Shown here: positions 32,194 through 63,004 of the stretch, one piece after another | Position numbering within the stretch: the first letter of the stretch is position 1 | Layout of the letters: every line of letters starts with the position of its first letter | NCBI RefSeq assembly: GCF_026210795.1 | Contig: NC_089449.1 | Coordinates: 496,001-560,000, forward strand | Length of the DNA: 64,000 nt | Direction: 5' to 3' | Source: Rhizophagus irregularis | Lineage: Eukaryota > Glomeromycota > Glomeromycetes > Glomerales > Glomeraceae | Made by a program: the position numbers and the translations under genes | The notes under the pieces: generated by a model | Database searches by the model: none | Told to the model about the DNA's origin: nothing | The model's input: the letters and a program-made list of their open reading frames with translations, nothing else

Positions 32194-33723
32194 TTACCAA
32201 TTTCCCAAATCATATTTCGGAATAATAAAGACATTATAAATTTCTTTTAATTCTTTGAACTTAAGACGATGATTATTTTTCAAACAATTTAATCCCAAAA
32301 ATCTTAAAGAATTCGTTTTCTTTGTATAATCGATAATATAATCGAAATCTGAATCGTTATATTCTACTGGTTGATTAATAATTATAGTTTCCAGTGAAGC
32401 TTTACAATTTTTAAATAAATGTTGAAATTTATCAGTACTAAAAGATCTTTTTGGCTTAAATAATTGACCGATATTAATATATTTTAAAGAAAGAGGTAAA
32501 TGTGAACCTAATGAATTATAAAATTGATCGATTTCACTATCTTTTAAAACCATATCCGTTAAAGTTAACTTTTCTAAAAAGTTTAAATGATCTAATAGAT
32601 TAAATAAATTATTTGATTCATTATATTCTAATTCACTAAAATGAAATTCTACAATATTTGAACATCCTATTGAGATTGATCGAGGTGCAGCATTTTTTAA
32701 CACATTAAGATAAAGATATTGTAAAGTGTTGTTATTTCCAAGTGTTTGAACAAGCGTTACTATATTTGAAGAAGATCTTGATGTTTCTAAATGTAATTTT
32801 TTTAAACGGAATTTTGATTTTAAAGAACTTCCAAAAGTGGAACATCTGCAATCTAAAAATTTGAGACTTTCTAAATTAACACATTCTGATAAAATATCAA
32901 AAATATGATCATTAATAAAGACTCTACAAAGGAAAAGAGAGGTTAAACTATTTATTTGTGATTTCAAAGCTGGTAAAATAATTTCTTCCCTATAAATCAT
33001 ATCATTAGGTCCATAATATTTGAAATCTTGAAGATTTGGTATAGCGAAAATTATATCTTTCATCGCTTTATTAACAGCCGTTGAATCACATTGTCTAAAA
33101 TCTAAAGATTTAATATCTTTACAAACTGCAGGAAGGAATTTTAAAAGATCCAAAGTATTATTATTACTTTCTTTGATTCGATAAGAACATTCGTCAAAGA
33201 ATAAACATGAAAATTTGATAATTCTTGATAAATGAGGAGATTGAGAAAAAATTGTATAATCTGGCATATTTTTTGAAATAATAGAAAGAGCTTCTAATCT
33301 TGAACATTTTCTCATTAAAAGATTACACAAGGCCTTTGTTATCCCATACACTTTCGGATTATTAGGTGAAGAAGTAGATAACTGATCTTTAATTTTAATC
33401 CATAATTCTACAGCTGACTTTAATCGATTATATTTAAATTCTGTTAAATAACTAGCATAATCGAAAAAAGGTTTTGGTAAATCAGGAAGAATAATATCTT
33501 CTTCTATTAAAGACTTGTCTTCATCCTCTAAACATGAAATATAAGTTTTAATAAGTTTTGCTTCTTTGGATGCCGTGCTAAAAGGTCGAGCCCATAAATA
33601 AGGTATAGCATTTCTGCACCAAGAACGACTCACAAGAATACAAGAATGCAAACACTGTATATCATTTGCTATATTTTGAAATATCATGAGAAGACATTCA
33701 GTCGGTATGAGAACTGGTGGCAT
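32194..33723 (-). CDS. F-box protein with leucine-rich C-terminal region
   Basis: A single-exon gene of 509 residues. The start MPPVLIPTECLLMIFQN is preferred over an upstream in-frame ATG at 33795, because the extra residues are encoded by low-complexity DNA. Residues 1-45 form an F-box (LIPTECLLMIFQNIAN, then SCILVSRSWCRNAIPYLWARPF). The rest is rich in regularly spaced Leu and short LRR-like segments (LKSLDFRQC, SLKFLDCRC, LEKLTLTDM). Such proteins usually recruit targets to SCF ubiquitin ligases through Skp1. This F-box/LRR type is expanded in Rhizophagus. No substrate can be inferred. Confidence 0.88.
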   Translation of the reverse strand: MPPVLIPTECLLMIFQNIANDIQCLHSCILVSRSWCRNAIPYLWARPFSTASKEAKLIKTYISCLEDEDKSLIEEDIILPDLPKPFFDYASYLTEFKYNRLKSAVELWIKIKDQLSTSSPNNPKVYGITKALCNLLMRKCSRLEALSIISKNMPDYTIFSQSPHLSRIIKFSCLFFDECSYRIKESNNNTLDLLKFLPAVCKDIKSLDFRQCDSTAVNKAMKDIIFAIPNLQDFKYYGPNDMIYREEIILPALKSQINSLTSLFLCRVFINDHIFDILSECVNLESLKFLDCRCSTFGSSLKSKFRLKKLHLETSRSSSNIVTLVQTLGNNNTLQYLYLNVLKNAAPRSISIGCSNIVEFHFSELEYNESNNLFNLLDHLNFLEKLTLTDMVLKDSEIDQFYNSLGSHLPLSLKYINIGQLFKPKRSFSTDKFQHLFKNCKASLETIIINQPVEYNDSDFDYIIDYTKKTNSLRFLGLNCLKNNHRLKFKELKEIYNVFIIPKYDLGNW

Positions 33724-35283
33724 TTTTTTTTGGAAAAAAAAATTTTTTTTTTTTGTACGGAGACAAGGGGTATATATACATATATTTTGGTCCAAATATG
33801 GAAATTATATACAGTAAGTATTTTTGGATTCCGCGATTCCGGGAGTAAATAAGCCACGCCTAACCTAAAAAATTTTTTTTTCCCGAACGTATTGTCTGCG
33901 TTTGTTGTTTTTTTTTATTGCATTATTTGCATTTTGTATTTGTTCATTTTTTTGTTACATCGATAGCAGTTTAAATTCCGAACTTTTTTTGGGCTGAAAA
34001 TAATTAGACCCATCGGACGCAGTAAATTTATACTAAAACGTCATCAAGTTGCCAAATCTGTGGGCTCTGTGTACTTATTATTATTATTTAATATTATTTA
34101 ATTTTTTTTAAGAATTATCATTATTATTAAACAATGTAGTGTAATTAAATAAATTCAATTCATTATTCAAAAAATTTCATGATATTTTTATCGATGAAAA
34201 CAATCCTTATTTATTTTATAATATTAAAATTCTGAATAATAATAATTTGGTAGAAGAAATCATCCTAGGAATTCCGGAATTAGACCCGGATTAATCCGAT
34301 TTGGAAAAAAAAATCGGATTTAATTCCGAATTTATTAAACAATTTCAAATTTCAGATCAGGTTTAGAGAAATTCTGGAAGAATCCGGATTCATGCCTTAC
34401 TAAAACGATAAAAACAAGAACAGATAACATAATAGTTTTTTTTTAACGGTAAATCTGTAATAGTAAGCAATTAATGAAATTTGTAAATCATCATATATAT
34501 ATCGTATGATTTTTCTCGTAATACACGAGCCAAAAACTTCACGTATCTTTGGTGAGCTCTAGCCTTAAATGGAGTTGAAATTTTACAATCGTATTACTCT
34601 TCCATTGGTAATAATTTTCTCTCATAATAATCTATTAATAAATTTTGATGTCACTTTTTGACTTTTTGACTTTTTGTGGTGTGAAAATATAAGTTTCCGC
34701 AATGACCATTTAGAATAAATCTTTTTATAATTTTTTGGATATTTTTATAATGATATATTTTCAATCATTATTAAATCACGAAATATGTATTTTTAAAGGT
34801 ATACCATTTGATAAATATAAACGAATCCAAGTTTCTTAATTTATACTACTCAATGAAAATAATTGGTTGGAATTTTACTTTAGCTTGTGATAAAATGCAT
34901 AAGATGTTTAACTTTATTTTTTTTATGATGTATACTGTATATAGTTAATTACGTATTGAATTACCTAATCACCAAGAATTTTGAGTTGACTTGCAGTATT
35001 GTCTATTACATATAGCGTAGTTTATTTATTTATTTATTTTATTTTTATTTATTTATTTTTCATTATTTACTTATTGTTTGATACTAATCATACTATATTA
35101 TATACATATTGCAGCACTTTTCTCAATATATATATATAACTTTTAAAAAGTCAAGTCACGTGATTTTTGGATCCGTCATGTCCCTATAAATCTGTAAAAG
35201 CGTAACATTATTTAAACTTTTCGTAGATTTTCAGTAGGTTGGGTTTTAGTTTTAGATAATAATAAAGATATTTCTCGTCTTGG

Positions 35284-38244: not shown

Positions 38245-39281
38245 ATGGAACTATATACTCGTCCATTAATCTTTCGCTCTTTAAAGGGTTTACAACTTTT
38301 ATTCGCTCTTGTATGTCTATCTCTAGGTAATTTACATTTTTCAAATCTTTTCAATCATTTTAAAAGTTTTTAAAATTTTAAAAATTTTAATTTTATTTCA
38401 ATAATAAAAAAAAATATGTAGAAATAACACAAATTGTTGAATCTTCGAAATATACATCGATTCCATTTAAATACTTTGGAGATTTTAAGTAAGTTGATAA
38501 AAAAAAATCTTTGGCTTCATAATTATAAAAAAATCAATTCATTAAATATGTCATTTTTTTTAAATTTATTAGTAATCTCGGGATGAAGGTATTCTTTTAT
38601 GTTATAATTCCGATAACAATACTTACTGTTGGTAACTATTGTTTTTTTTTTCAAAGAATTTGACATTTTTTTTCTATTTGATTCATATTTAATTATTCAA
38701 ATTTTAAATGATAGGATGGTATTTAATAAATTTTGATTCTTATTGGAGAAATCCGTCAGCTTATAGAAATGTAGGAATTGATAGGTAACGATAAATGATA
38801 ACCATTAAAAAATTTCTTTCTTTTTTTTTATTAAAAAAAAAATTATTGCTAAAATTTTTTTTAATTTTTTTTTTAAATAAAATTCATTTAGCTTTTTAAC
38901 AATATTATGGGTAGTTTCAGGTATATAAAAAATATAATTCAACAAATATATATATATATCATTAACTAAAATTAAACGTTCTTCCTTTTTTTTTTAGGAT
39001 TAACAAATATAATTCCAATATATTACGGAATTATGTTAATATGTCCAACGACAATGGCATCACTTGATCATATTTATGAAAGACAATTAGTATGTCAAAC
39101 ATATATAGCGAGTATGTCAATTGGATGGGCTAATGCAGTATTATTTATGGTATCGACATTATTTTCATGGAGATTATCAAAAGAATTAGAATGGAGAGGT
39201 GCAATAACTTCATTTAATAGACAATCTTCTATTAGTCAATTTAGTAGGAGAAACAGTAATCGAACATCATCAATTCCATAA
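38245..39281 (+). CDS. Four-TM small membrane protein, cluster member 1 (divergent)
   Basis: Six exons (38245-38326, 38422-38488, 38573-38631, 38715-38784, 38892-38920, 38998-39281) join in frame to 196 residues, with intron phases 1,2,1,2,1. Predicted helices: FRSLKGLQLLFALVCLSL; NLGMKVFFYVIIPITILTV; FLTILWVVSGLTNIIPIYY; and after the loop, SMSIGWANAVLFMVSTLFSW. The TM3-TM4 loop has the family's cysteine pair (ICPTTM then LVCQTY) but lacks the Cys cluster after TM2 and the R-x-x-N motif. The tail is Ser/Arg/Asn-rich and probably cytosolic. Family unknown. It belongs with the cluster mainly by its identical exon plan. Confidence 0.8.
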
Positions 39282-40261
39282 TATTAATTGCATAAATTCT
39301 TTTTGATCTAGAAAAATGAACAATTTATAAACGTTTAATTATTATAAATCCGGCATAATATAAAATATATATTTACATATACAGTATATATATACACATA
39401 TAATATTAGTCGTTACTATTTTTTTTTTATAATTGTAAATAATAAATCCTTAAATGTATTTCTTGCTTATATTACGTAATTTGTAATATTAAAAAAAAAA
39501 ATCATTTTTTTTTTAAATAAGTTTTTTCCATATGTAAGAAATTAGAAGGGAAGGATGTAATACCATTCTTCATACATATTGCATTATACGTCCTACAAAT
39601 AAAATCATTTTTTTTTTGTTGTTATCTAATCTACGAGGTAATAACTGAATATATTCTTTGTTTAAAAAAGATGAGAAATTTGAACGCCCCTGTGTTACAT
39701 ACATATTATTTATATATATATATATAAAACATTACACTAAAATAACGTATGATATTTAATTTTTGTGTTAGATGATAAAAAAAAAAAGAAGAGTTTTGAA
39801 TTGAATAAGATAGATAATAAAAAAGGGGTTTATCCAGCGGTTATACTCTTTTATATAAATATCGTTATTTTCTTGAATGTATATATTTTTATTTTTATAA
39901 TAAAGTTTTATTCTAATAATCTTTCTAAAATTCCAAATGCATCATAGAAAACTTACATTACATACTGTGTTATAATCGTTAAGAAATGCATAAAATGCAT
40001 AATGGCGCATATACATTTATGACTCACGTGATAACCCATTTTTGTTTTTTTTAAAAAGAAAAATTTAATTTTTTAATAATTTTTTAATTACGTTCAATAT
40101 AGTCATAATAGCATAAGTGCATAAACACCTTCTAATATATATGCACTCTTCCCCCCTTTTAGAATGCACGCCATGTACAATATAGTACCCGAGTTTCTTT
40201 TTACTCCCGAAATTTTTATTGTATGTACATAAATAGTATTTGATACTATATAGAACGTTTT

Positions 40262-41321
40262 TTACGGTTCTGTAAAAATTTTACGTTCATTTTCCTGCCC
40301 ATTGTTTTCACCTTTTTCATCTATTATGACACTTTTTAAAATTTGTCGTACGAAACAACAAGCGCAAATCATAGTTAATAATGAACAAATACCTAAAATC
40401 CATAAACTAATTAAATTTATAGTATTAATTTTACAAATATGAAGAAGTACTGGATATTTATAAGGAAAATTTGATGGGCACATGAATGGTATTCCAATCA
40501 ATTCTTTATATGAAATGATCGTATAAATTCCTACAATAAATAAAATAAAAAAATTACTTGTTATAAACAGTACGGTATATATATATAAAATAAATAATAA
40601 ATGTCATTTTTATTATTATTACCTGCGAATATTATCCAGCATAAAGAAAAACAACTATAAAAGAAAAGAAATGAATTACTTAATTAATATATATATATAT
40701 ATGTAAAATATACGTATACGAATATTTATTATATATACGTATACAAATAATTATTATATTATACGAATATTTATTATATCCGTATACAAATATTTATTAT
40801 ATACATATACAAATATTTATTTTTTACCTTATTCCCAGAATATACGATTGTAATGATCTTTTCTTTACCATAGAATAACATACACGTCCAGAAAATACTA
40901 TAAGATAAGATTCATTTAAAAAAAACTCGGATAGTCGTATCAATATTCATTTGTTATTTATCGAAAAATAAAATTTTAAATATTTACCGATATTTAAAAA
41001 TCCAAGAAGAAAATAACTGTTTTACGAAAAAAAATCGTTATTAACTAATGAGAAGAATAACGAGAAATAACGAGAATAACTTTTTTTAACATGCGATAAC
41101 TCACGCGAACTCCAAATTAAGATTCTTTAATTGGATATTATACATATTAAATTCAATTAATTTCCATAATCCTAAAAAAAAACGGAAATTTATCGTAAAA
41201 ATGAACTCGTAAACAGAATATCATCATAGATTAGGTATTTACCAATAATAAAACATATAATTGTTACAGGGAATTGGATCAAAATCATTAAATTTAATAA
41301 GAAAGAAAATTTTGAATCCAT
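40262..41321 (-). CDS. Four-TM small membrane protein, cluster member 2
   Basis: Six exons, phases 1,2,1,2,1. Starts at 41321 (MDSKFSFLLNLMILIQFPV) and ends at 40262. The second exon reads GLWKLIEFNMYNIQ. The TM2 segment is followed by CYSMVKKRSLQ, then SLCWIIFAGIYT (TM3), the loop ELIGIPFMCPSNFPYKYP, then HICKINTINLISLWILGI leading into TM4. A Cys-rich end (MICACCF) follows TM4, with a charged tail. The loop motif and paired cysteines match members 3, 4, 6 and 8. Convergent with member 1. Function unknown. Confidence 0.85.
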
Positions 41322-41819
41322 CGTAATAATAATGTAATAATTTTACAGAATATTGGATGAGAGAAAAAAAAGAAAAAATCTGTAAACAGTAGAAGAAATT
41401 TTAAACGATTCCATTTATACCATTCTCAATCAAATGTTTCAAGTTCTTTTTTAGAGTTTGAAGACTTGTTGACTTTTTTTAATATAATAAGTAAAATACA
41501 ATATCCATAGTTGAACACAAACCGATAATAATGCTTATCTAGGTACGACAAGCGTTGTACAAGTGAAAAACATTCAGATACGCGTATCGTAAGTTTCGGT
41601 AATTTAGTGTTTAAGGCTTTGAAATTATATAATATTATATAATTCAGATATGTTAAATATGTGATAATATGGGATATGGGATCTCCAAGTGATCTCCACA
41701 ACCGAACTGATCGCTGCCTTCTAAAATTGTCAATTATTAATTTATTATTATCTAATATATACAATATATGTTACATATTATGAAAAATTAATCTATTGTT
41801 CGCAAAATAATATGATTTG

Positions 41820-42822
41820 TTACTTTTTTATATTTTTCGATTCTTTATCCACCTTTTCACTTTTTTCTGAATCGTTATCTTCAATACCAAACCCAAACCA
41901 TTCGTTATATTTAGATTCAGGAATATGCATTGCAAAAGTTGCAAGTATAGTACTAATAAACATTAACCACATACAAATTATATTTGATATTCGTATTTGA
42001 CATATGAATTGAAGTCTTGGAAATGAATATTTATAATTAGATGGACAAAAAATGGGTACATCTCCTAATTCACCAATTGTTTTATATGTATAAACAACTT
42101 TTTTTTAATAAATGGTGAGTAAATTAATTAATAATTTCAATTTTTTTTTTTTTTTGATATAATAAAATATAAAATTTATAATCCTTACTTGGAACAATTA
42201 TCCATAATGATGTTGCTACACTATGAAAAGAGATAATTAAATTAGAAATAATGAAAGTAATTAAAAATAAAATAAAATAAAATAAATCAAGTAATATTAC
42301 CTAAATTTCCAATTTAATTGTTTTACATTATTGTAACAACAACAAAAACATAAAGTTATCGTCAAAGCTAGATTTTATTGAATTTATTAAATTAATTGAA
42401 AATTACAATTATATAATATGCTTTGTTAATAATTATACTTACATATTTGAAAGAGTAAAAGGATAAAATACCTTGTTTTAAATAAATAAAAAAAAATCAG
42501 ATGAATTAATTTAATAATAATAAAAATAATAATAATTTCAAATATCTGATTCTACTTACGAATATTCTACATTTTCATTAATTGGTAAATTATATTCTTT
42601 AAATAATATGATTTTCTTGTATTCTATAATAATATCGCGTAATTTCAATTAGATTTAATTATTTGGTTAAAATAAAAAAAATGTTATTCATATATTCATA
42701 CCAAGAATTGGAGTAATAAAAATTAATGGAAATTGAATCAGAATGATAAAACACACGAAACATATTGTAAAGGTCATTGCTAAATAATTTGGTTGTTTAC
42801 GTGCGGTTGTATGAGTGGCCAT
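41820..42822 (-). CDS. Four-TM small membrane protein, cluster member 3
   Basis: Starts at 42822 (MATHTTARKQPNYLAM), six exons. TM1 is FVCFIILIQFPLIFITPIL; exon 2 reads YKKIILFKEYNLPINENVEY. TM2 is followed by the strongest cysteine cluster in the family (LCFCCCYNNVKQL). TM3 is ATSLWIIVPSIVYTY. The loop is GELGDVPIFCPSNYKYSF then FICQIRISNIICMWLMFI into TM4. The tail is acidic, then Lys-rich, and ends at 41820. By the positive-inside rule the loop would face outside and the Cys cluster the cytosol (inference). Same strand and orientation as member 2, about 0.5 kb apart. Confidence 0.87.
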
Positions 42823-43970
42823 AATGATTGTTTTCTTGTTGTAATTCTTCAATTATCTTGTTGTTTAATCAGATCGTTATTAAAATTAAAAAGAATATCT
42901 TCTTTTCACATATTATATTTTTTTTGATTTCTCTTTTTTTATCGTAAAAGAAGCCACTTTCTTGTATGTAGCCCTTTATATCAAGCCACATATCTAATTT
43001 ATAATTTAAAGGCTTTTTTTTTTTGATAATCAGTGATGAAAGTTTCTTAACCAATTATTGCGTTTTTTAAATTACATATTTACTGTATATTGTTATAATT
43101 ATTATTTTCTTTCTTTATGCGTAAAAAAATTGAATTTACTTAAGATGTCGTGTCAGAAAATCAGAATAATCGGATGTCGTGCATCAATTAACTTGGGGAT
43201 CTTCGTCACTTTCAGGTTTGGACTTTCAACTGTTGAAAAAGTCAAGAAAAAAGTGATATTATTAAGAGACAATAAACTATTTGTAATATATATTTTAAAC
43301 AAATCTAACTAATTTTAACTATTTTATCATATATATATATATATATATATATACGCCCGATTTCATGCTATTTCATAATTTAGTTAGTATATATGCATAT
43401 TCGATGTTCTTATTTACCATATAAATCTAGATAGTATCATAGAATAAGGCGTTTTACAGTAGAATTTGCCGGACCTATAAGTGATACGAAATAATATGAA
43501 TACACTTTCTACTGAATCGACACAAAGCGCAGCATACAAATTAGCATAAATTTATTAAAGTCTTTGAAGTTCAAAAAAAGTATTTCGATTTTTCTTTTCT
43601 TTTTTTAGTTACAAAGAAAAAAATTTGTGACAAGATTCGTGGCAAAAAAAATATATAAATAAATATATTATATATGTTTTTCCTAATAATTATAATAACT
43701 TTACCTACGTGTCATTTGACAAGCCTTATTTATAGATTATCTCTAAATTGGTTATGTGTTTCCACATAATTGAGGAATATGTCCTAGTTTTTATAGAATG
43801 TTCGTTCCAAGGACGGTATTAAAAATTATATATATATATCTAAACCAAATCAATTTTTAAATTTTCAAACCTTTTTTTTTTTCTTTTTTTTTTCTCAAAA
43901 AAGAAAATTCATTCTATAACTTCTATTACTTTTCGGTTTCTTGATAATCTTTTAGCATTTAATCGATCAC

Positions 43971-44899
43971 CTACACTTCTATTCCTTTATAAATTTTGTC
44001 AGGAATATACATTGTAATTGTTACGAGTGAATTGGATAAAAACATTAACCACATACAAATTAAATTTGCTGCTCTAACTTGACATACAAAGCGTGCTGCT
44101 TTAGATGAATAACCATAATCAGACGAACATAAAAATGGAGTTTCCCCTAATTCTTTTCCGGTAAAGTAAGTGTATACGGCTTGATTATCGTGAATGTTAA
44201 CCGTTAAATGAGATTATTTTTTTTACAACGATAAAGAAAAAAGAGTTTGATTTGAAAAATGTATTCATTTATCTTCTTACTTGCGCTGATGAGCCATGAA
44301 ATTGTCGCAAAACTTTAACGAAAAAAACAAATCACTTTCCGTTATTAATATTATTAATACGAGTCAATAAAGGAAATGTCATAAAATAACATCCATACAT
44401 GAATTCCTTAATCAACCGTTTATTTTTAGTAAAACAGTAACCACAAAGAAGATTGTACGAGACTAAAATAAAATAATAAAAAAATTATTAAATGTCTAAA
44501 AAAAAACTCGATAATTCCATTTACTTACCTAAATTAATCAAATTAATGCCTAAATACCTGTTATAATTAAGTAAAAAATTACCGATTAATTGAAATCAAA
44601 AAAAGAAATCAAATTTAGCAACATAAAATAATACTTTACGTGTATTCTACAGGTTTATTTAAATAAAGATCACGTCTTTTAAAGAGTTGAATTTTCCAAT
44701 ATTCTTTTATATTATACAATCCAAGCATAAAAATATTATTAAATTTATAATTAAAAGTACCGAATCGATATCTCAAAACAAATTATATATTTATATACTA
44801 ACCGAGTAAACCGAGTAAAGGACAAATGATTACTAAAGGGATAGTAATAAGACACACACAAAATATGAAACAACCATACAAAAAGTTTTTTATGGGCAT
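43971..44899 (-). CDS. Four-TM small membrane protein, cluster member 4
   Basis: Starts at 44899 (MPIKNFLYGCFIFCVCLI), six exons; exon 2 EYWKIQLFKRRDLYLNK. After TM2 comes LLCGYCFTKNKRLI. TM3 is ATISWLISATVYTYF. The loop is GKELGETPFLCSSDYGYSS, then FVCQVRAANLICMWLMFL and TM4. Short tail, stop at 43971. Divergent from member 5; the 980-bp spacer must hold both promoters. Its loop has CSSD instead of CPSN. Confidence 0.85.
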
Positions 44900-45879
44900 T
44901 TTTATATTTAAACCTTGATGATTTTAAATTTTACGCGGAAAAGATAAACGCGATAAATTCGATAAACTATATAAATTTGATAAACTATAAATTTTACAAG
45001 CTTTACATACTGTTAAATGACGTTCGATAAGATACATAAGATACACAAATTGCACTTTGAATACTTTGGATAAATTGTCAAAATACGCGCCACTTTTTGT
45101 GAAAATTGATTTATATTAAGCCTTAAAATGTTGCACGATATTAATCTTGAGATATAAATGTTTGTGGCGCTAATAAAATTTATTACAGACCACTGAAGTA
45201 AAGTCATTGAAAAAAATATATAATGAACGTTTCGAAGGATTTATATATATAAAACGATTTCGATAAAGACAAGCCATCGTTATTGTTGAAAAACTTGATT
45301 GTCAATTCTTCAAATGTTCCTGTTTTATTTATTTTTATGTTATTACAAAAATATAATTGATATTCAAAAAATAAAAAAGTGTTTTTTAGGTATAATAATC
45401 TTTACGAAACCTTTACTTTCTAATAACATTTAGAAAGAATTCAAAGATGATTAATTAATACACCCGCAGCGATTTGAATCGCGAAATATCACGTGAGCAA
45501 GAGAGAGAATACCAGTTTTGCGACACAGCCGTAAACTTTGCCACATTTTATAATAAATTAAGACAATAAAAAGGCTGGCTATTTTAACTATTTTAAACAG
45601 CAAATTTTATGTCAGAATCGCATTAAACTGTATTTTATGTATAATCAGCCTTTATAGGCTTAGGCGCTTAGCAAATGAAAATGAATTACATTCAATATAA
45701 TTTATATATAAACACAACGAATAATAAACATGTGATGATTTATAGCTTTTTTAAGTAGAAAATTAAATGTTGTAAAAAAAAAAAATTACTTAATCTCTTT
45801 CACTTTTTTTTAGTATGAATATCGGTTAAAAAATTTAATGAGTTAATTTTTTTTTTTTTTAAAGAAAAATACTATCACT

Positions 45880-46919
45880 ATGTCACTTAAGTCACTTGTT
45901 AGTTTGATCCTCGGTATACCGTTTACGATACTTATTTTCGTTTGCCCAATTTTAGGTACGATAAAAAATTCTTGACAAATAATTTTCTTTCTTTCAATAA
46001 TAAAATTTCTAATTTTTTATAAATTTATTAGAAATTGGAAAAATTGAATTATTTAGCAGAACAAATGGAATACTTATATATGATACGAACGTTGAATATA
46101 CGTAGGTTTATTATCTTTTTCGATACAGTCAACTCTCTATAAATGCACACCCTTTGTAATTGCACAGTCCAAAGGGGGTGCATTTATAGAGAATTGACTG
46201 TAATATATATATATATATATTTATATGTATGTATATTTATATGTATGTTTACAAGATTTTTTCAGATTGTATACTTAAAAAAAGAATCTTTTTTATTCGT
46301 ACTAAATTCAGCTACTTGGTTCTCTCATTAATTGCACCTAGTAAGTGTAAAAATAATTTTCGCGTTTATTTTAATTTATTAACCAATCACGTGTCATTAT
46401 GTTTTTTGCAGGTGTGCTGATATTGGTGTATTTTTTTAAATGTCATTGGGATAATGTTTCACCTATGACCGCAAAATTACTTTTAGTTGCTTATCTATTT
46501 GGTTGTATAGGAATTTCTAGTAAGTTATTTCAAATTTAATGCATATTTTTATTAGAGTACTCACAATTAATAATTAATATATCGTAGTCGCATACACAAT
46601 TTTCACAATTAATGAATTAAGGGGAATACCATTTGGATGTCCAGATAGTTACCATTATGCGTTACCACAAGTTCAAACAGCATGTCAAGCACGTGCAGCA
46701 AATTTTGTATCAATGTGGGCTTTCGTGTTCTTCTTAATATTGAATGTCATATTATTAGTATTTGGAATGGGTCCATTAGAAAGTGAATTATTCGCTGATA
46801 TTGGTAAGCGAAAACTACCAAAGTCTGACACTTCCACACAGCCTCGTGACAGTGGTAGTGAACCATTTAGTCAGATCGAATCAGGGCAACAACAACAACA
46901 GAAAGACGAAAAAGAATGA
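45880..46919 (+). CDS. Four-TM small membrane protein, cluster member 5 (one intron lost)
   Basis: Five exons (45880-45955, 46032-46101, 46312-46340, 46412-46519, 46588-46919) join in frame to 204 residues. Exon 4 spans what are exons 4 and 5 in the other members, so one intron was lost precisely (or never gained). TM1 is LVSLILGIPFTILIFVCPIL; exon 2 EIGKIELFSRTNGILI. After TM2 only one Cys is left (YFFKCHWDN). The loop is NELRGIPFGCPDSYHYALP then ACQARAANFVSMWAF and TM4. The tail is Ser/Gln-rich. Intron 2 carries a 75-bp MITE (46126-46200). Confidence 0.87.
46126..46200. mobile_element. Pogo/Tigger-like MITE in intron 2 of cluster member 5
   Basis: Terminal inverted repeats of about 31 bp beginning CAGTCAACTCTCTATAAATG, with about two mismatches between arms, almost no internal sequence, and TA on both sides. 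TA duplication and a CAGT end fit Tc1/mariner elements of the pogo/Tigger branch. It is non-coding and lies wholly in an intron. A diverged relative is at 19671-19817. Confidence 0.85.
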
Positions 46920-47537
46920 AAAATACTTGAATTGCAAATTCGTATATTAAGACTAAAATTTTTGTGATTGATCCAATTATGAAAATGTATAATATATTTA
47001 ATTCTCCGCGCGGGTAACCGTAGAAATAGATTGAATGTTGGTGAAAGGGAAGCTAATAATAGTGATGAACGATTTCAATATTTTTATTTTTATTTTATTA
47101 TTTTTTTTTTTGGTTTATTTTATAATTGTAATTTATTTAATCATTTAATTATCACGTGATCAGTTAAGTTACGTGAAACTTTTTATTTTTTTGAATCCGT
47201 TTAATAAATCACTGTAGTTAATTATTATACAATAATTTTCCCAGTTTAACTCAAATTGGTTTATTGAGAGATAACGTGTGAAAGACACGATGTAAATTTA
47301 ATGGTGGCTGAGGTCGCTAAGCCGATTGACAAAAAAAAATAAGCCTGAATTTTTGTGGCTATGTAATATTTTTTTTTTATAAAGCAAGTTTCTCTTTGAA
47401 ATTAAAATTTATCAATTCGTGAAACAAATTTGTTAATTTGATTATAAAACATTATGATAATTACACAAAAATAATTTTTTCTAAGTTCATCTTATTTCTC
47501 ATCAAAAATTGAGAATTAAGAAGTAACGAAAACGAAG

Positions 47538-49028
47538 ATGGGAAGTTTTATAAGATATATATTAGGTGGATTAGTTGGAATATGGTTATTATTGGTTATA
47601 TTGGCTCCAATAACAGGTACTTTATACCACCATTATGAATAATATATATTAATAAATCTTTTTTATGTATTTTTTTTATTTTTTTTTTAATTTAAAAAAC
47701 TTTTTTTAGAATTTGGGAAAATATTAATTTTTAAGATGGTTAGTAAAGCAGAATTGAATCGCGTTATTGAATATGTGTGAGTAATATGATTAATTAATTC
47801 ATTTAATTGAAATTTCTAAAATTTCTAAAATCAATTTTTATTTATTTATTTTTTATGATAAAAAGTTATTTCTTAATTTCATTTCTTGTGCCATGTAAGT
47901 ATTTTGGTTTTTTAAATGATTTTTTTTAGTTTTTTTTTTTAATCATATTATTATATATATATATATTTATTTACTTTATAGGGTGGATAGTTGTTACAAA
48001 CTGTTGCGTATGTTTTGCACAAAAAGGAATATTAACTCCTAAAGAATTAATAAGAAAATTAATGTAAGTATTGAAAAAATTAGATTTATATATTATATAT
48101 ATATATACTAATTATTCTTATAAATTTTTTCTAGTTTCATGGTTATAGTTTGGATAGCTATTTCAGGTATGAATAATTAAAAACTCAAAAAAGTTGATTT
48201 ATAATTTACAAGTTGATTGATTTTTTTTTATACATTCTTCACATACTTCACATACTTCGTATACTTCATATACTTCAATATATACTTCATATATACTTCA
48301 TATACTTCATACACTTCGTATACTTCGTATATTTCATATACTTCACATACTTCACATACCTCGTATACTTCATATATACTTCATATACTTCATATATACT
48401 TCACATACTTCATATATACTTCGTATACTTCATATATACTTCACATACTTCACATACTTCATGAACTTCATATATACTTCACATACTTCATATATACTTC
48501 ATATACTTCATATCTTCACATATACTTCACATACTTCACATACTTCACATACTTCAAATACTTCAAATACTTCAAATACTTCACATACTTCACATACTTC
48601 GTATTCTTCATATACTTCATATACTTCACATACTTCACATACTTGTATACTTCATATATACTTCACATACTTCACATACTTCGTATATTTCATTTACTTC
48701 ATATATACTTCATATACTACATACTTCATACACTTCGTATATTTCATATACTTCACGTACTTCACATACAAAAGTTTTTTACACATATTTTACAAAAAAT
48801 GATATTGGAGATATTCCATCTAATTGTCCACCAGATTATCCATATTCAGAACCAAAACTTCGATTAGCATGTATTATGAGAACAGCAAATTATGTTATTA
48901 TGTGGACGTATACAAGTTTATTAATTATATTTTTAATTTCTGTTTTGAGTGGGGTTTTACCACAAGAAGAGGATATGAAAAAGAAGGGAAAAGATTTTAA
49001 TATTAAAACTGTTGTTGAAGGTGTATAA
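47538..49028 (+). CDS. Four-TM small membrane protein, cluster member 6 (minisatellite in last intron)
   Basis: Six exons (47538-47616, 47710-47776, 47866-47894, 47982-48063, 48135-48166, 48775-49028) join in frame to 180 residues, phases 1,2,1,2,1. TM1 is LGGLVGIWLLLVILAPI; exon 2 EFGKILIFKMVSKAELN. After TM2 comes TNCCVCFAQKGILT. TM3 is FMVIVWIAISVFYTYF. The loop is NDIGDIPSNCPPDYPYSEP then LACIMRTANYVIMWTYTS and TM4. The last intron (48167-48774) is filled by a tandem repeat; its acceptor AAAG is weak but keeps the frame and the family motif. Confidence 0.87.
48230..48770. repeat. Degenerate ACTTCATATACTTCACATA minisatellite inside an intron
   Basis: About 540 bases made of 9-bp and 11-bp words (CATACTTCA, TATATACTTCA), with local blocks (AAATACTTC, CGTATACTTC). 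All three + frames are open because the unit contains no stop codon, giving repetitive Tyr-Thr-Ser type translations that should not be taken as protein. Confidence 0.92.
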
Positions 49029-50402
49029 ATAAGAACGGATTTTAAAAAAAGGTAATTATGAGATAGAAGAGTAAAAATAATTTATTAATAGAGTTAAATC
49101 ATTTTTTTTTTAAAAAAAAAAACATTTTAATTTATATATATTTTTTTTATACTGTATATGGTTTTATAAACTTTTTTTTTTATACTTATAATGAGCTTTA
49201 ATTCCGGAGATGCATTTTTCGACGTGATATGACGTGACCATCACATAACTACGTGACTTTATGGCGTAATAACCTATAAATAGGGCTGGCCTGTAATGTC
49301 GTAATTTGAGAGAATTATTTATAAAGATTTTTGATGGCTTATGTTTATTATAAACGCGTGTACGGCGTGTACGGCGTGTACGTAAACATATCGTTAAGCC
49401 ATAATAAATGGCTTGTATTTTGAAAAGTATTTGATTATGTTATAATCCGACATCCGACGTAAACTAATTTTTGAACGATATTATTTTGATTTCATTCTTT
49501 GATTGGTAGAATCGAACGTAATGAACGTAATTTTTATACTGTTCATTCGACAGATAAATAAATAAAAAAATATTTTGCTTAACTTTTTAAGTATGGTCAA
49601 AGTTTTTTCTACGGTTTAGCAAGAAACATGAATTAGGAATTGTCAACAAATATGTGATGCTACATGATGAACAAAAGAAACTTTTAAAAATAAGATTTTG
49701 TATCCTAAATCCTAAACCTAAACCTAATTCGGTAAAATTTCTCTCAAAAAATGAAACATGTATTCATTGATTATCGATTCGGATAGATTTTGTCATCTGA
49801 CATTCATTCAACGGATATCTTTCAATCTGGCAACAAATTTTGTTCGAATAATATAAATAAATAATAGGTAATATTTTCTTTTATAAACCAGAAAATAAAG
49901 TTTACTAAATTTATTTGACTACATTAATAACAGAAATATTTAAAACTGCATGTTATTTATGTTATATACAAACCAAACAAAAATTATCCGTAACGGATAG
50001 CGCCCTTATATTCATTCTATCGGATGGCCGGATTGGATCTTTACGATCTGTTATGAAATTGACGCAGTAATTTAAAGGGCTTATCTATCTATAGATGTGA
50101 ATTTACATAATAAATCGAAATTTTTTAGTGGCGCTCTCTTTTCTATTTATTGGCCAATTGAACTTTGCCATATTTGTTCTAGTTTAATAGATTTTTTTTT
50201 TCTTTACCGTAATTTCCGTAATTTGAACAAAAATTCAACACTCTTACCTTTTTTAAAGATAACGGATAATTACATTTAACTAAATTATTGTTTAATAATA
50301 AACACATGTATTGATTAATTTATTGGAGACTTGCTTTTCTTTTTTTTTAAAAAAAAAAATTTCTTTTACAAAAAATAATTTTTTTTTGTAAAAGAAAAAA
50401 AA
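49029..50402. other. Spacer between cluster members 6 and 7
   Basis: No gene seen. A small tandem repeat GCGTGTACG lies at 49358-49382. The 50097-50279 frame (+) is unlike any family member. The promoter of member 7 should lie at the right end. Confidence 0.5.
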
Positions 50403-51383
50403 ATGACAGGTTTTATAGTCTCAAATTTATTTATTGTTTTTATTATTATTCATATTCTCTTATTATTTGTTTGTCCGTTTTTAGGTGTGTTTAATTTTAT
50501 ATATTATATTTGAGGAATTTTTTTCAGTCTTAATTTCCATGTTTTACATATTTATTTTATTATTATTTTTTTTTTTGAATAGAAATTTGGAAACTAAAAT
50601 TATTTAGTGACAATCAACTTTCTACTAATTTATTAGAATATATGTAAGTATATTTAAAATATATTTTACTAATAAAACTTAATAAACAAATTCTTTTAAT
50701 GAATTTCTTTATGTAATTACAGTTATTTAGCTCTTATTTCATATCAGATTGGTAAGTATAAGTTTATATCATGATTCATTTGGTCTATCATATTTGACAT
50801 ATTTAACATTTTGTTAACATTTCTCTCTCTCTCTTTTTTTTAGTTATGCATGTTATTATCTGTTGTTTTTTTAATTGGCTTAGTTCTAATGGATTAAAAT
50901 TGATTTTTATGTAAGAATTTTTAAAAAATAATTATATGAATTATATTTTTATAATTAACTTTATTAAATTTTTTTTTTTGTTTAAAAAAAGTGTGTCAGG
51001 GATACTTTGGTTAATCATTCCAGGTAAAAAATATTATAATTTATAATATTAAAATATAATATATTATTAATTATATATCTTTTCATTTTAAAGCCATCTA
51101 CACAAATTTTACCATTAATGAATTAGGAAATGTTCCATTTCTTTGTTCACAACTTATTTGTAAGATTAGAGCAACAAATTTAATTATAATGTGGATTGGA
51201 TTTATTACGATATTTTTTATGACAATTTGTATCGTTTTTTTTGAAAATGAGAAATTAAATTTATTAATGGGTAAAAAGAGAAAAATTAATAATAATAAAA
51301 AACAAAAGAGACCAAGAAAAAATAGTAAATGTAGTGAAGTAGGAGCAAAATTGGTAAGTTTGGATAATGATGTTGAAAGTTAA
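50403..51383 (+). CDS. Four-TM small membrane protein, cluster member 7
   Basis: Six exons (50403-50484, 50583-50643, 50723-50751, 50844-50910, 50992-51023, 51094-51383) join in frame to 186 residues, phases 1,2,1,2,1. TM1 is FIVFIIIHILLLFVCPFL; exon 2 EIWKLKLFSDNQLSTN. TM2 ends VIICCFFNWLSSNG. TM3 is VSGILWLIIPAIYTNF. The loop is shorter than in its relatives: NELGNVPFLCSQLICKIRATN, so the two cysteines are only a few residues apart, then LIIMWIGFITIFFMTICI. The tail is strongly basic (KKRKINNNKKQKRPRKNSK), suggesting a cytosolic C-terminus. Confidence 0.87.
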
Positions 51384-51407
51384 AAAGTTAAGTATTATTA
51401 TTATTAT

Positions 51408-51535
51408 TAATTATATCACGTAAACTTCACGTTAAAAATTCACGTAAAATATCGTAAAATTCACGTAAATTCACGTAAATTCACGTAAAATATCACGTAA
51501 AATACCCCACGTAAAATATCATGTAAAATACACGT
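51408..51535. repeat. CACGTAAA-rich degenerate tandem repeat
   Basis: At least eight occurrences of TCACGTAAA or CGTAAAAT words with irregular spacing, directly downstream of member 7. It may be a 3' UTR repeat or simple expansion. CACGT words also occur widely elsewhere in the window. Confidence 0.7.
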
Positions 51536-51988
51536 ACTTGTCATTACTTGTCGTATTGTATAGTGTATAAACTTGTATATATTATAATATATGTATATAT
51601 TTAATATCATATATATATCTATTTATTTAATTCTTTTTGAATAACTGTAAATATATTTTTCTTTCCTTCTTTCCTTCTTTCTTTCTTTTTTCTTTCTTTT
51701 CTTTCTTTTTATTATTTATATTTTTTTTTATTTTATTTACTTTTATTTTTTTTTTTACCTTTATTATTATTAATATACGGTATTATTATTAATTAAAATT
51801 TATAAAAAATTATCAATTTAAATTACAAAATTACATCAGAACTTTTTCCCCACGAATTGCAAAGATTTCCCCTTTCCTTTACTTCCTTTTCTTTAATACT
51901 TTAATACTTAGTTCATCTCTAACTATCACTTCCTCTTATCCTTCGCGATCGGGCTTGAATTTTTAAATGTTAAGAATGAAAAAAAAAA

Positions 51989-52937
51989 TTAATCCCTACC
52001 ATCATTATCAATTCCAACCATATCTTTGTAAGTTTTTTCAGGAACGCACATTATTATAGTAGCTATTAATGTAATTACAAACATTATCCACATACAAATT
52101 AAGTTCGCTATTCTTATTTGACATAAATGTAAAAGTTTTGAATTTTTATAAGGATAATTTGATGGACAAAATAATGGAATATCTCCTAATTCATCAATTG
52201 TATAATAAGTATAAATACCTAAAAAAAAAAGAGAATATTAAAAATTTTTAAAACATGAAAAAGAAAAATATTATATATATATAGTATATATATTATTACA
52301 TATATTTACTTGGAATAACAAACCACAAAATTGTCGAGATACTAAATATAAATAAGAAAGAAATATTTAAATATTTTTTTAATTTTCAAGAGATGTTTTT
52401 ATTAAAAAATAGTACCCAAATTCCAGATCAAGTTGTTTTCTTTCGAAAAAACAGCAAAAAACAATCAATAATAAATGTAAAGCTAAATGAATAAATAATA
52501 TTCATTAATACTTTGATAAATAAAAATATTTATATTATCATATATACATATATTTCTTACCAATATGAAAGAACGTTAACATCAAATACCTTTTATGATA
52601 ATTCAAAAAAAGAAATATGGTGTGAGAGGTGTAAGATTAAATAAAGAAATCGAAGTACTTACATATATTCTATAGGTTTTCTAATTGGAATTTCATTCTT
52701 TTCGAAAAATTGTAATTTAAAAAATTCTTTTTTTTTAAAAAAAAAATATAGATAAATAAATATAAAAGAATTTACTCTTCGTTACATTAATTAATTAATA
52801 AAAAAAAATTTATTTATTTATGATTTTTTACCAAGAATTGGACATATAAATATCAAAGAAAATTGAATTGTGCATATAAAACAAAAAATTATTGTAATAG
52901 TATATATCGTGGCATAATTTGGTCGAGTCGCCGCCAT
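51989..52937 (-). CDS. Four-TM small membrane protein, cluster member 8
   Basis: Starts at 52937 (MAATRPNYATIYTITIIF), six exons, stop at 51989. TM1 ends QFSLIFICPIL; exon 2 EFFKLQFFEKNEIPIRK. TM2 is followed by VFCCFFERKQLDLEF. TM3 is ISTILWFVIPSIYTYY. The loop is DELGDIPLFCPSNYPYKN, then HLCQIRIANLICMWIMFV and TM4. The tail is short and acidic. This member matches the family consensus best. Convergent with member 7. Confidence 0.87.
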
Positions 52938-54146: not shown

Positions 54147-55434
54147 TTACGAAAGTAACAACGAACTATACCTGCCTTTTTGGAATTCATGAACTTCAGG
54201 ATATATTTTCTTCACCCAACACTTTGCTTCCCTCCATTGCTCGAGATTATCAAAATACATGTGAAAAGAATGACCATCGGGCTTGTACCACCAACAAAAC
54301 GTGTTCAAGTTCATATAACATTCCATCACCTGTTCGTTACCCCAAGTTTCAACCGCGTCTCCATTGATTTCAAGAAACTTTTTGTCCCGAGAGTTTTCGC
54401 GTCCATAAGCATACATAAAAAGTGTATAATAAGAATCTAAATACGTGATTCTTGTTTGTAAATCAGGGCGATAAGGCACATTTATCCATTTACAATGTTG
54501 AGACATTCCTAAAAGGTAGATTACTTTTAAGCACATAAATTTTAATAACCAATGATTACATATTTAATTACCATGATCCCAGAACCATATCTCGACGATC
54601 CAGTCTCTCAACAGAGCTCGTCTTAATACAGGACGATAATCTCCATCACCACTAACAACTACAATTATGCCGGGTCTTTTATGTTCTTGAATTGCGTCAC
54701 TAATAGAAGCCCCTAGCTCATTCTGATCAAAGACTGTTACTTGACATCCAAGATTTTCAAGTTCTCTCCATATCGAATCGTTCGTCGGTGGACACGACCC
54801 AACAATAACCGGGTTATCGCCTATTTGTCGTCCGTTCAGAACCGTTTTCAGAAGCCGACCGTAATCGATATAAAGTTGATCCTCATAAACATTTTCAAGG
54901 TTGCTAATTAATTGCTTTCCCTCGATTTCAATATTAGGATTATCAATAAAAATGTGTACTAGTCCGGTGGGTTCTCTTGAAAAACCTACAAGGAAAGATA
55001 TTTACATAAATCCTGCGAAACAACGGTTATCTAAAAGTTAAGCCAAGACGCGTTCACTCGCGTTCACTTACCGGTTGCACCGGATTGCTCTACAATGTGT
55101 TTTTTTCGGGCGGTTTGACGATAAGATGCAGTAAAGAAAGCACAAGATTAGTAAGTATTCGGTATTATATAACAGAAACTATTTTTAGAACCTTACTTTG
55201 ATTATTTAACTTATTAATTAAGTTGACAAGCTTAGCTCTTGGCCCCATTCGAATGTTACATTCTTTAAACCTTTCTTCGTTTAACATAAGAAAGCTTTCA
55301 CCATCAATCCCTTGATCACGAAAAATTCCAAGTTCATTTTCGGTAAGGCCAAATTTTCCTTTCATGAAAGCGATAAGAGCCTCCATGTCATATTTTTTCA
55401 CATCTTCATACGTAGCAATTGGAGTTGTAGACAT
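54147..55434 (-). CDS. SAM plus NYN domain protein (putative RNA-processing nuclease)
   Basis: Four exons. The start is MSTTPIATYEDVKKY (55434); an upstream in-frame ATG at 55470 is less likely. Exon 1 is a SAM domain (residues 5-75; FRDQGIDGESFLML). A tiny exon (about 55080-55096) leads into the NYN/PIN-like domain: VHIFIDNPNI (first catalytic Asp), NPVIVGSCPP, FDQNELGASISDAI and VVVSGDGDYRPVL (second acidic site), then a Trp/Tyr-rich C-terminal exon (54147 to about 54510). The acidic residues typical of NYN nucleases are present, so activity is plausible. SAM-NYN proteins are a recurring type in Rhizophagus. No partner gene is adjacent. Confidence 0.85.
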
Positions 55435-61960: not shown

Positions 61961-63004
61961 TCATTTGTAAATTAAAAATTTAGCAAGAATATAATCATTT
62001 TGAACAAAAATATATTCGCTCTTTAGTTCTCTACTTATTTTAGATATTTCATCAATACTTATTTTCATATGTTTGCCTCTTCGAGATAATCTAGATTGAT
62101 GTCGTGGAGCAAAACAATGCCGTAAATATGGTTTAACTTCACTAGAAAAGTCCTCACTTGAAATATTACCAAATCTAATTAATTCGACATAATCTTTTAA
62201 AATTTCCCATAATTCATTAAAGTCCTTCTCCTCCCATTCGTTAACGTCCCTTTCACTATTAGAACACTTATGAATCCCCCATTTAACAACATATTTCCAT
62301 ATTTCAACTTCGTCCATCTCTATATCATCTCTTTTCAACAGGTCAATCAATAAATCTCCACTTAAATTAATAAAATCACTAGACTTAAATATTAATTCGG
62401 GATTCTCACTCATCTTTTGAATGCAAAATTCTTGAAGATTTTTACATTCCACAAATCGATGAGCATGAAATTGAACTTTGATAAAATCTGTTTTAATCCA
62501 AGTATCAGCGAGAGATAATAAATGAGATTCTGCAAAATTCATTAATTCCGTTAACATAAATTCATCAGTAGCGCATAGTAAGTCTAGTAGTTCACAAGGC
62601 GTAAGCTCGTCGAGAGACACAGTACCACTATACAAATGTCTATTAAAAAAAAAGATTAAAAATGAATAAACAAATAAATTTAAATAAATAAAAAAATAAA
62701 AAATAAATAAATAAATAAAAAATTTTTTTTCTTACTTGAGGATAATTTCAAAATTTTTTGGTGAAATATTTGGTTTTTCAAAAACTATTTTATCTCCTTC
62801 CTTCTTAATCCAACCGCTTGATAAAGCGATTCTAAAATAAGTTGATTGTGAAGTTAAAATTAAAGCATGAGCGAAAAATGTTTTACTATTTGAACCATTT
62901 CCAACTTTAATTATCGTATCATAATTAATATTTGGGTTTTGATATAAATAATCGAAATTTTTTATTAATCTATTTACTAATATTTCAGCTGACTTAGATG
63001 ACAT
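61961..63004 (-). CDS. BTB-BACK domain protein
   Basis: Two exons (62736-63004 and 61961-62639) join to 315 residues, starting MSSKSAEILVNRL. BTB/POZ is at residues 10-120 (NGSNSKTFFAHALILTSQS, YFRIALSSGW, then HLYSGTVSLDEL and ELLDLLCATDEFML). BACK is at about 130-235 (FIKVQFHAHRFVECKNLQEF and LIDLLKRDDIEMDEVEIWKYV). The protein ends soon after BACK, without the Kelch or TLDc domain many relatives carry. BTB-BACK proteins usually act as substrate adaptors of Cul3 ubiquitin ligases. BTB proteins are a very large family in Rhizophagus. Substrate unknown. Confidence 0.9.

What the first reader, a model, noticed from the sequence alone, without database searches (positions are those of the whole stretch)
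38245..52937. Cluster of eight paralogous four-helix membrane protein genes
Eight genes of about 180-205 codons lie in about 15 kb with no unrelated gene between them. They point both ways (+,-,-,-,+,+,+,-), so they did not arise by simple head-to-tail copying alone. All have four predicted helices, a cysteine pair in the TM3-TM4 loop and a charged C-terminal tail. I cannot place them in a named family. A MARVEL-like four-helix fold is the nearest architecture, by topology only. A dense, strongly diverged family of small surface proteins in a symbiotic fungus could be a recognition or membrane-organising system.
Basis: partly seen in the sequence, partly recalled or inferred. Interest (0 to 1): 0.82.

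Follow-up and report, generated by a model that had tools for sequence, protein, structure and literature searches.

The report
MARVEL-type four-helix protein gene cluster
A fungal chromosome carries eight neighbouring genes, part of a larger family on the same chromosome, for small four-helix membrane proteins that look like diverged relatives of the known MARVEL family of membrane-organising proteins.

Summary
In detail: eight related genes (five introns each, four in E) lie at 38245-52937 in the stated orientations, with no recognisable foreign gene between them. They can be placed. Gene A belongs to a 12-member subfamily of which 8 hit Pfam MARVEL at E up to 1 (best 2e-6); its consensus passes Pfam's cut-off. 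B-H belong to a 16-member subfamily that Pfam misses (0 of 16), joined to the first by profile comparison (hhalign E 2e-8, score 60; controls at most 32) and by intron phases. So this is a diverged MARVEL-superfamily branch, in a genome matching Rhizophagus irregularis by size and contig number. Of 28 modelled members, 22 lie on one chromosome that is 2.6% of the genome. In B-H and relatives the outer TM3-TM4 loop is the most conserved region (43% identity), the inner loop and tail the least (13-17%); an aligned invariant cysteine marks the inner end of TM2. That speaks against a diversifying recogniser and for a membrane adaptor with a constant outside and a variable inside, probably S-acylated (inferred). 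Structure was not predicted; expression and presence in other fungi could not be tested.

The parts
38245..39281 (+). Gene A (196 aa), subfamily II. Exons 38245-38326, 38422-38488, 38573-38631, 38715-38784, 38892-38920, 38998-39281
   Evidence: gene model; Pfam MARVEL E 0.0023, 18.4 bits, under the cut-off; 10 of 10 splice sites recovered from the C6 paralogue
40262..41321 (-). Gene B (181 aa), subfamily I. Exons 41321-41243, 41171-41105, 41016-40988, 40897-40828, 40654-40623, 40530-40262
   Evidence: BLASTP to H E 6e-25; least certain model, 4 of 10 splice sites recovered from a paralogue
41820..42822 (-). Gene C (196 aa), subfamily I. Exons 42822-42702, 42623-42560, 42471-42443, 42367-42301, 42220-42189, 42097-41820
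   Evidence: BLASTP to H E 3e-61, 49% identity; 10 of 10 splice sites
43971..44899 (-). Gene D (164 aa, or 161 if the first donor of exon 1 at 44812 is used), subfamily I. Exons 44899-44803, 44703-44640, 44557-44529, 44462-44399, 44312-44281, 44179-43971
   Evidence: BLASTP to H E 5e-44; 9 of 10 splice sites
45880..46919 (+). Gene E (204 aa), subfamily I, lacks intron 4. Exons 45880-45955, 46032-46101, 46312-46340, 46412-46519, 46588-46919
   Evidence: BLASTP to C E 2e-25; 8 of 8 splice sites
47538..49028 (+). Gene F (180 aa), subfamily I. Exons 47538-47616, 47710-47776, 47866-47894, 47982-48063, 48135-48166, 48775-49028
   Evidence: BLASTP to E E 5e-24; 10 of 10 splice sites
48237..48769 (.). 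9-bp minisatellite, about 57 copies, inside intron 5 of gene F
50403..51383 (+). Gene G (186 aa), subfamily I, shortened TM3-TM4 loop (C-x4-C). Exons 50403-50484, 50583-50643, 50723-50751, 50844-50910, 50992-51023, 51094-51383
   Evidence: BLASTP to H E 4e-32; 10 of 10 splice sites
51989..52937 (-). Gene H (175 aa), subfamily I. Exons 52937-52832, 52726-52663, 52589-52561, 52482-52416, 52341-52310, 52218-51989
   Evidence: re-predicted from C with the same exons and protein; 10 of 10 splice sites

Best explanation
The eight genes are part of a diverged MARVEL-superfamily of four-helix membrane proteins that grew mainly on one chromosome of what is probably an arbuscular mycorrhizal fungus. Shown here by computation: common descent of the eight and of at least 20 more loci, the MARVEL relation of gene A's subfamily, the homology of B-H to it, the cysteine pair in the TM3-TM4 loop, the aligned invariant cysteine at the inner end of TM2 in subfamily I, and the unequal conservation of loops and tail. 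Inferred: N- and C-termini are cytosolic; the loop cysteines form a disulphide; the TM2 cysteines are S-acylated and hold the protein in ordered plasma-membrane or vesicle domains; the shared outer loop supports packing or a common partner, while the variable inner loop and tail recruit different cytosolic partners. On this reading the proteins are membrane-domain adaptors, comparable in role to Nce102 (eisosome, sphingolipid), HAM-8 (hyphal communication and fusion) or oomycete MDP1/2 (vesicles, haustorial membrane).
For: Gene A hits MARVEL over residues 13-158. In its subfamily 8 of 12 members hit MARVEL at E up to 1, best 2.1e-6, and no other Pfam family is hit by more than one member; of nine of them scanned singly at E up to 0.1, five hit, four of these at 3.2e-5 or better. 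The subfamily consensus scores 34.5 bits against the cut-off of 32.8. The two subfamily profiles align over 143 columns including both loop cysteines, E 2e-8, score 60 against 22 (two reversed controls), 16 (best of 30 column shuffles) and 32 (best of 30 block shuffles). Hand-spliced A and six of B-H (E lacks one intron) share intron phases 1,2,1,2,1; over all 28 models 21 have the full series. CC dipeptides occur in 14 of 16 subfamily I proteins, in 12 of them at the inner end of TM2; 25 dipeptides in all against a shuffle mean of 5.4 and maximum of 14; none in subfamily II. TM3-TM4 loop identity is 43% against 27-31% in helices, 13% in the inner loop and 17% in the tail, for 15 of 16 rows; the loop beat the helices in all 500 subsamples.
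Against: No B-H type protein (0 of 16) hits MARVEL at E up to 1, nor does their consensus; their place rests on the link to subfamily II. No member of subfamily II that I saw scored singly passes the Pfam cut-off, and four of nine gave no hit at E up to 0.1. A single partial MARVEL protein of the same genome gave only weak profile matches. No structure was predicted. Net loop charges only weakly favour cytosolic termini (means +1.2, 0, +1.2, -0.1, -0.1). Intron positions outside the window come from models guided by paralogues, and seven of 28 depart from the full series. Palmitoylation, localisation and expression are untested. B's exon model is uncertain.
Confidence: 0.55

Rival explanations
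1. A diversifying surface recognition or allorecognition system: many outer-loop variants that tell self from non-self or sense the plant.
For: Dense cluster with strong divergence; in gene A's subfamily the outer loops do vary more than the helices (EL1 15%, EL2 22%, against 30-40% in helices; tail 16%), and its TM3-TM4 loop was below the helices in all 500 subsamples.
Against: In the seven cluster genes B-H the TM3-TM4 loop is the most conserved region (43%) and the tail the least (16%). The one young pair tested has dN/dS 0.16, though it is not in the cluster.
Confidence: 0.12
2. A neutral or dosage-type expansion: ordinary duplicates kept by drift, with no joint system.
For: Broken copies exist: hits with in-frame stops at C21 620.8k and 668.3k and C16 306.5k. 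Other window genes include F-box and BACK proteins, which I recall as expanded in this fungus.
Against: All eight cluster genes have intact frames and splice sites although B-H pairs are mostly 25-45% identical. In the 16 subfamily I proteins C77, Y102, C132, N138 and W143 are invariant and T103, T106, P114, C117 and R135 nearly so.
Confidence: 0.25
3. Not MARVEL: B-H are an independent four-helix family (for example tetraspanin-, claudin/SUR7- or DUF1218-like) that only resembles it.
For: 0 of 16 members hit MARVEL; the families hit by most members, SLC3A2_N and WBP-1, are hit by 2 of 16 each at E 0.016 or worse. The subfamily I consensus has its best, weak Pfam match to DUF1218, E 0.011 over 42 residues.
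Against: hhalign to subfamily II far above controls; shared intron phases; no tetraspanin, claudin or SUR7 family among the Pfam matches at E up to 1 of the 28.
Confidence: 0.1

Closest known systems
MARVEL domain family, Pfam PF01284
   Same: Four helices. A, L010, L011, L015 and L017 of subfamily II match profile positions 7-9 to 133-135 of 135; L016 from 50. The subfamily consensus passes the cut-off.
   Different: Members scored singly stay under the cut-off; subfamily I is not recognised at all. Five introns in most models, whereas the two hits of the Pfam profile in this genome (C25, C9) are read in single open frames across most of the profile (that search goes exon by exon, so MARVEL genes rich in introns would be missed).
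Nce102 (fungal eisosome MARVEL protein)
   Same: Tetraspan plasma-membrane protein of fungi, reported to respond to sphingolipids and to have a cytosolic C-terminus (PMC9431316, passages read).
   Different: No sequence comparison was made here. The C9 gene with CRTQRAANAFGW looks to me closer to the classical fungal type (recalled, not tested).
HAM-8 of Neurospora crassa
   Same: Described as having four transmembrane domains characteristic of MARVEL proteins; needed for cell communication and fusion (PMC6455062; PMC4184795; passages read).
   Different: 597 residues, one gene described; no sequence comparison made here.
PiMDP1 and PiMDP2 of Phytophthora infestans
   Same: MARVEL proteins of a filamentous plant-associated organism, on vesicles and the plasma membrane (PMC12457093, passages read).
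   Different: Two MARVEL domains each, oomycete, two proteins; no sequence comparison made here.

Membership tests
MARVEL (PF01284) | Profile match over the curated cut-off (32.8 bits) | tested here: inconclusive
   Gene A 18.4 bits; best member of its subfamily 28.3 bits; subfamily II consensus 34.5 bits. B-H: 0 of 16 subfamily members match at E up to 1, nor does their consensus.
MARVEL (PF01284) | Four transmembrane helices spanning the domain | tested here: met
   22 of 28 by hydropathy; of the six with three calls, L012 and L018 are partial models; C, L003, L006 and L007 each miss one helix at threshold 1.3.
MARVEL (PF01284) | MARVEL fold in a structure | not tested
   No structure job was sent (spliced proteins are not contiguous translations of the window). 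Sequence search of PDB: subfamily II 0 hits, subfamily I one hit at E 3.9, not significant.
MARVEL (PF01284) | Common descent of B-H with the MARVEL-matching subfamily | tested here: met
   hhalign E 2e-8, score 60 against at most 32 in controls; intron phases 1,2,1,2,1 in 9 of 12 models of subfamily II and 12 of 16 of subfamily I.
MARVEL (PF01284) | Cytosolic N- and C-termini | tested here: inconclusive
   Mean net charge N +1.2, L12 0, L23 +1.2, L34 -0.1, C -0.1 over 22 proteins.
Tetraspanin | Large TM3-TM4 loop with CCG motif and Pfam match | tested here: not met
   No tetraspanin family among the Pfam matches at E up to 1 of 28 proteins; the loop region is 23-35 residues in subfamily I with one conserved cysteine pair. 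CCG as the defining motif is recalled.
Claudin / SUR7 | Conserved W and cysteine pair in the TM1-TM2 loop and Pfam match | tested here: not met
   No claudin or SUR7 family among the Pfam matches at E up to 1 of 28 proteins; no invariant W or C in the TM1-TM2 loop; the pair is in the TM3-TM4 loop. The claudin motif is recalled.

The most novel reading that the evidence does not exclude
One chromosome is a nursery for a MARVEL-type family in which one branch (B-H) keeps a fixed outer loop and lipid-anchor cysteines but varies its inner loop and tail, while the sister branch (gene A) varies its outer loops. Together they would be a combinatorial set of membrane-domain organisers used at the contact surfaces of the symbiosis (hyphal fusion or the arbuscule membrane).
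Probability: 0.15. Interest if true: 0.7.

Novelty: new variant of a known kind. Interest (0 to 1): 0.48.

Why it matters
In the passages I read, MARVEL proteins of fungi and oomycetes are treated as single genes or a pair. An expanded, chromosome-concentrated family in a probable arbuscular mycorrhizal fungus would give named candidates for how such a fungus organises its plasma membrane, vesicles or hyphal fusion. A fixed outer loop with variable inner parts is a concrete, testable design. The gene models and the conserved residues would also let others annotate these genes; Pfam misses the B-H branch.

Tried and rejected
Tetraspanin, claudin and SUR7 were considered and rejected on Pfam and cysteine position. 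A phage or virus link was not supported: PHROGs gave one of 16 subfamily I members a hit at E 0.017 to a family without a name, and a scan of viral contigs with H, which reaches close relatives only, confirmed none of 9 pattern matches. The same scan of prokaryote genome contigs confirmed none of 45. No fungal collection was at hand, so relatives in other fungi remain uncounted. PDB sequence searches gave nothing useful. Hits left out of the 28-member set because weak, fragmentary or broken: C21 620.8k, 668.3k, 866.2k and 1132.4k, C22 784k (fragment, 5' part inverted), C16 306.5k, C13 2013k, C32 2229k, C9 2692k. L012 and L018 were kept as partial models and dropped from the region counts; L006 was dropped there as a near-copy of L007 but kept in the CC count.
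Full report
THE OBSERVATION. The window is C21:496001-560000 of a 146,748,485-base genome in 32 contigs. Size and contig number are close to the R. irregularis DAOM197198 assembly GCA_026210795.1 (32 scaffolds, 146,773,001 bases; table passage of PMC10234402). The species is thus an inference, not a lookup. I spliced the eight genes by hand. Re-predicting each gene from its best different paralogue returned 71 of 78 splice sites, with B the weak one (4 of 10); scores were 195-439. Six of the queries on the reversed window, with a shorter maximum intron, gave at most 74 in 86 segments. The window showed no further member: the best other segment scored 77.

WHAT THE PROTEINS LOOK LIKE. B-H match each other at 25-49% identity, E 1e-13 to 3e-61. 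A matches only H with E below 0.01 (2e-4). Hydropathy calls four helices in 22 of 28 family members. The cysteine pair lies in the TM3-TM4 loop of all eight. C-x14-C is the spacing in 13 of the 16 subfamily I proteins; G, L028 and L042 differ (read). In all 16 an aligned cysteine sits at the inner end of TM2 (column C77 of H). Fourteen of 16 have a CC dipeptide, 12 of them at that place: 25 dipeptides in all, against a shuffle mean of 5.4 and maximum of 14. D and E have none, and subfamily II has none.

FAMILY SIZE AND PLACE. Seven protein queries (parts of E, A, H, L010, L019, L007 and L020) were run over the whole own genome. From their hits and the window I built 28 gene models: 16 of subfamily I (A3) and 12 of subfamily II (A2; two partial). 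Twenty-two of 28 lie on C21, which is 2.58% of the genome. Counted as separate places, 10 of 16 are on C21 (binomial P 9e-13, assuming independent places). Query choice could favour C21, but the query from C6 found, besides itself, six hits, all on C21. Counts are lower bounds, as the tool states. Broken copies occur: hits with in-frame stops at C21 620.8k and 668.3k and at C16 306.5k.

RELATION TO MARVEL. Gene A matches Pfam MARVEL over residues 13-158, E 0.0023, under the cut-off. Eight of the 12 members of its subfamily match MARVEL at E up to 1, best 2.1e-6, and no other Pfam family is matched by more than one. Of nine members scanned singly at E up to 0.1, five match (0.033, 3.2e-5, 2.5e-5, 4.9e-6, 2.1e-6) and four do not. 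The subfamily consensus scores 34.5 bits, above the 32.8 cut-off. Subfamily I is different: 0 of 16 match MARVEL, nor does its consensus. The two subfamilies are nevertheless homologous. Profile-profile comparison gives E 2e-8 over 143 columns with both loop cysteines aligned. The score of 60 compares with 22 for two reversed profiles, at most 16 in 30 column shuffles and at most 32 in 30 block shuffles. Introns run in phases 1,2,1,2,1 in 9 of 12 models of subfamily II and 12 of 16 of subfamily I. The first and fourth usually fall in the same alignment columns of both, the others mostly three to nine columns apart. E lacks intron 4, L006 intron 1; L019 kept one intron; L028 and L042 depart; L012 and L018 are partial. 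Models outside the window were guided by paralogues, so the independent part of this evidence is hand-spliced A against B-H. The tree separates the two subfamilies on one branch with 100/100 support, but it is drawn from the midpoint, 14 of 25 inner branches are open, and the program warned of long branches. A single partial MARVEL protein of the same genome (C9) gave only weak matches to both profiles.

HOW IT EVOLVED. Within the clades, some cluster genes pair with genes elsewhere: A with C27 (98/90) and F with C16 (96/89); C with C21 961k is weaker (94/84). So the cluster is not one recent tandem burst. A young branch (C21 608k and C29 731k) has dS 0.27 and dN/dS 0.16 (one pair). Two of its relatives (C22 784k, C21 668k) have sequence from upstream of the last exon in inverted orientation relative to that exon. 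Local inversion is therefore seen in the family and could explain the mixed orientations; this is inference.

HOW IT LIKELY WORKS. In subfamily I (15 of 16 rows) the mean pairwise identity is 43% in the TM3-TM4 loop, 34% in the TM1-TM2 loop, 27-31% in the helices, 13% in the inner loop and 17% in the tail. For the seven window members it is 43% in the TM3-TM4 loop, 21% in the inner loop and 16% in the tail. In 500 subsamples the TM3-TM4 loop exceeded the helices by at least 10 points. In subfamily II (10 of 12 rows) that loop is 22% and lay below the helices in all 500 subsamples; its tail is 16%. The region limits were set by me on H and A. The design of B-H is thus constant outside and variable inside, if the topology is the usual MARVEL one, which does not suit a diversifying recogniser. 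I infer a MARVEL-type adaptor: a cysteine-paired outer loop, S-acylated inner cysteines that favour ordered membrane, and divergent cytosolic parts that recruit different partners. The functional parallels are Nce102 in eisosomes (PMC9431316), HAM-8 in cell fusion of Neurospora (PMC6455062, PMC4184795) and MDP1/2 on Phytophthora vesicles (PMC12457093); I read passages of each. No sequence comparison with these proteins was made. Hyphal fusion is reported for Rhizophagus intraradices in PMC6455062, so a fusion role is possible but untested.

LITERATURE. "Rhizophagus irregularis" with "MARVEL domain" gave 0 papers. "MARVEL" with "Rhizophagus" gave 4. In the one I opened (PMC6455062, passages) the word stands in the account of HAM-8 and in a reference; the other three were seen only as listings, with titles on other subjects. 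These searches cover only the held open-licence library, so I do not claim absence from all print. Of PMC10234402 I read passages and one section; it maps gene age along chromosomes, but the passages I saw do not speak of this family.

VERDICT. The cluster is real and of a known kind (MARVEL superfamily), but notable in scale, chromosomal concentration and constraint pattern, and subfamily I is a branch that Pfam misses. That it is a MARVEL relative is, in my judgement, about 0.85 likely; the adaptor mechanism as worded about 0.55. Expression, structure and taxonomic spread remain open.

Noticed in passing
window 48237-48769: A 9-bp minisatellite of about 57 copies (CTTCATATA) fills most of intron 5 of gene F and makes that intron 608 bp.
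   Followed up: partly
L034 (C22 784k) and L040 (C21 668k), compared with L007: In both loci sequence matching the part upstream of the last exon is inverted relative to the last exon, with different breakpoints.
   Followed up: partly
window 44803-44812: Gene D has two possible exon 1 donors 9 bp apart; the alignment with its relatives favours the shorter form.
   Followed up: partly
C9:2724435-2724914 and C25:1022177-1022650: Two places found by the Pfam MARVEL profile in the same genome, each in a single open frame over most of the domain; the C25 one passes the cut-off, the C9 one does not.
   Followed up: no
window 54567-55001, minus strand: Beside the cluster lies an ORF with a NYN-domain match (24.1 bits, just under the cut-off of 24.2).
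   Followed up: no
window 32197-33804 (-), 61964-62731 (-), 22402-23016 (-), 7391-8230 (-): Other window ORFs: F-box protein, BACK-domain protein, ATP-grasp domain as in biotin carboxylases (enzyme name recalled), CPL-domain protein.
   Followed up: no
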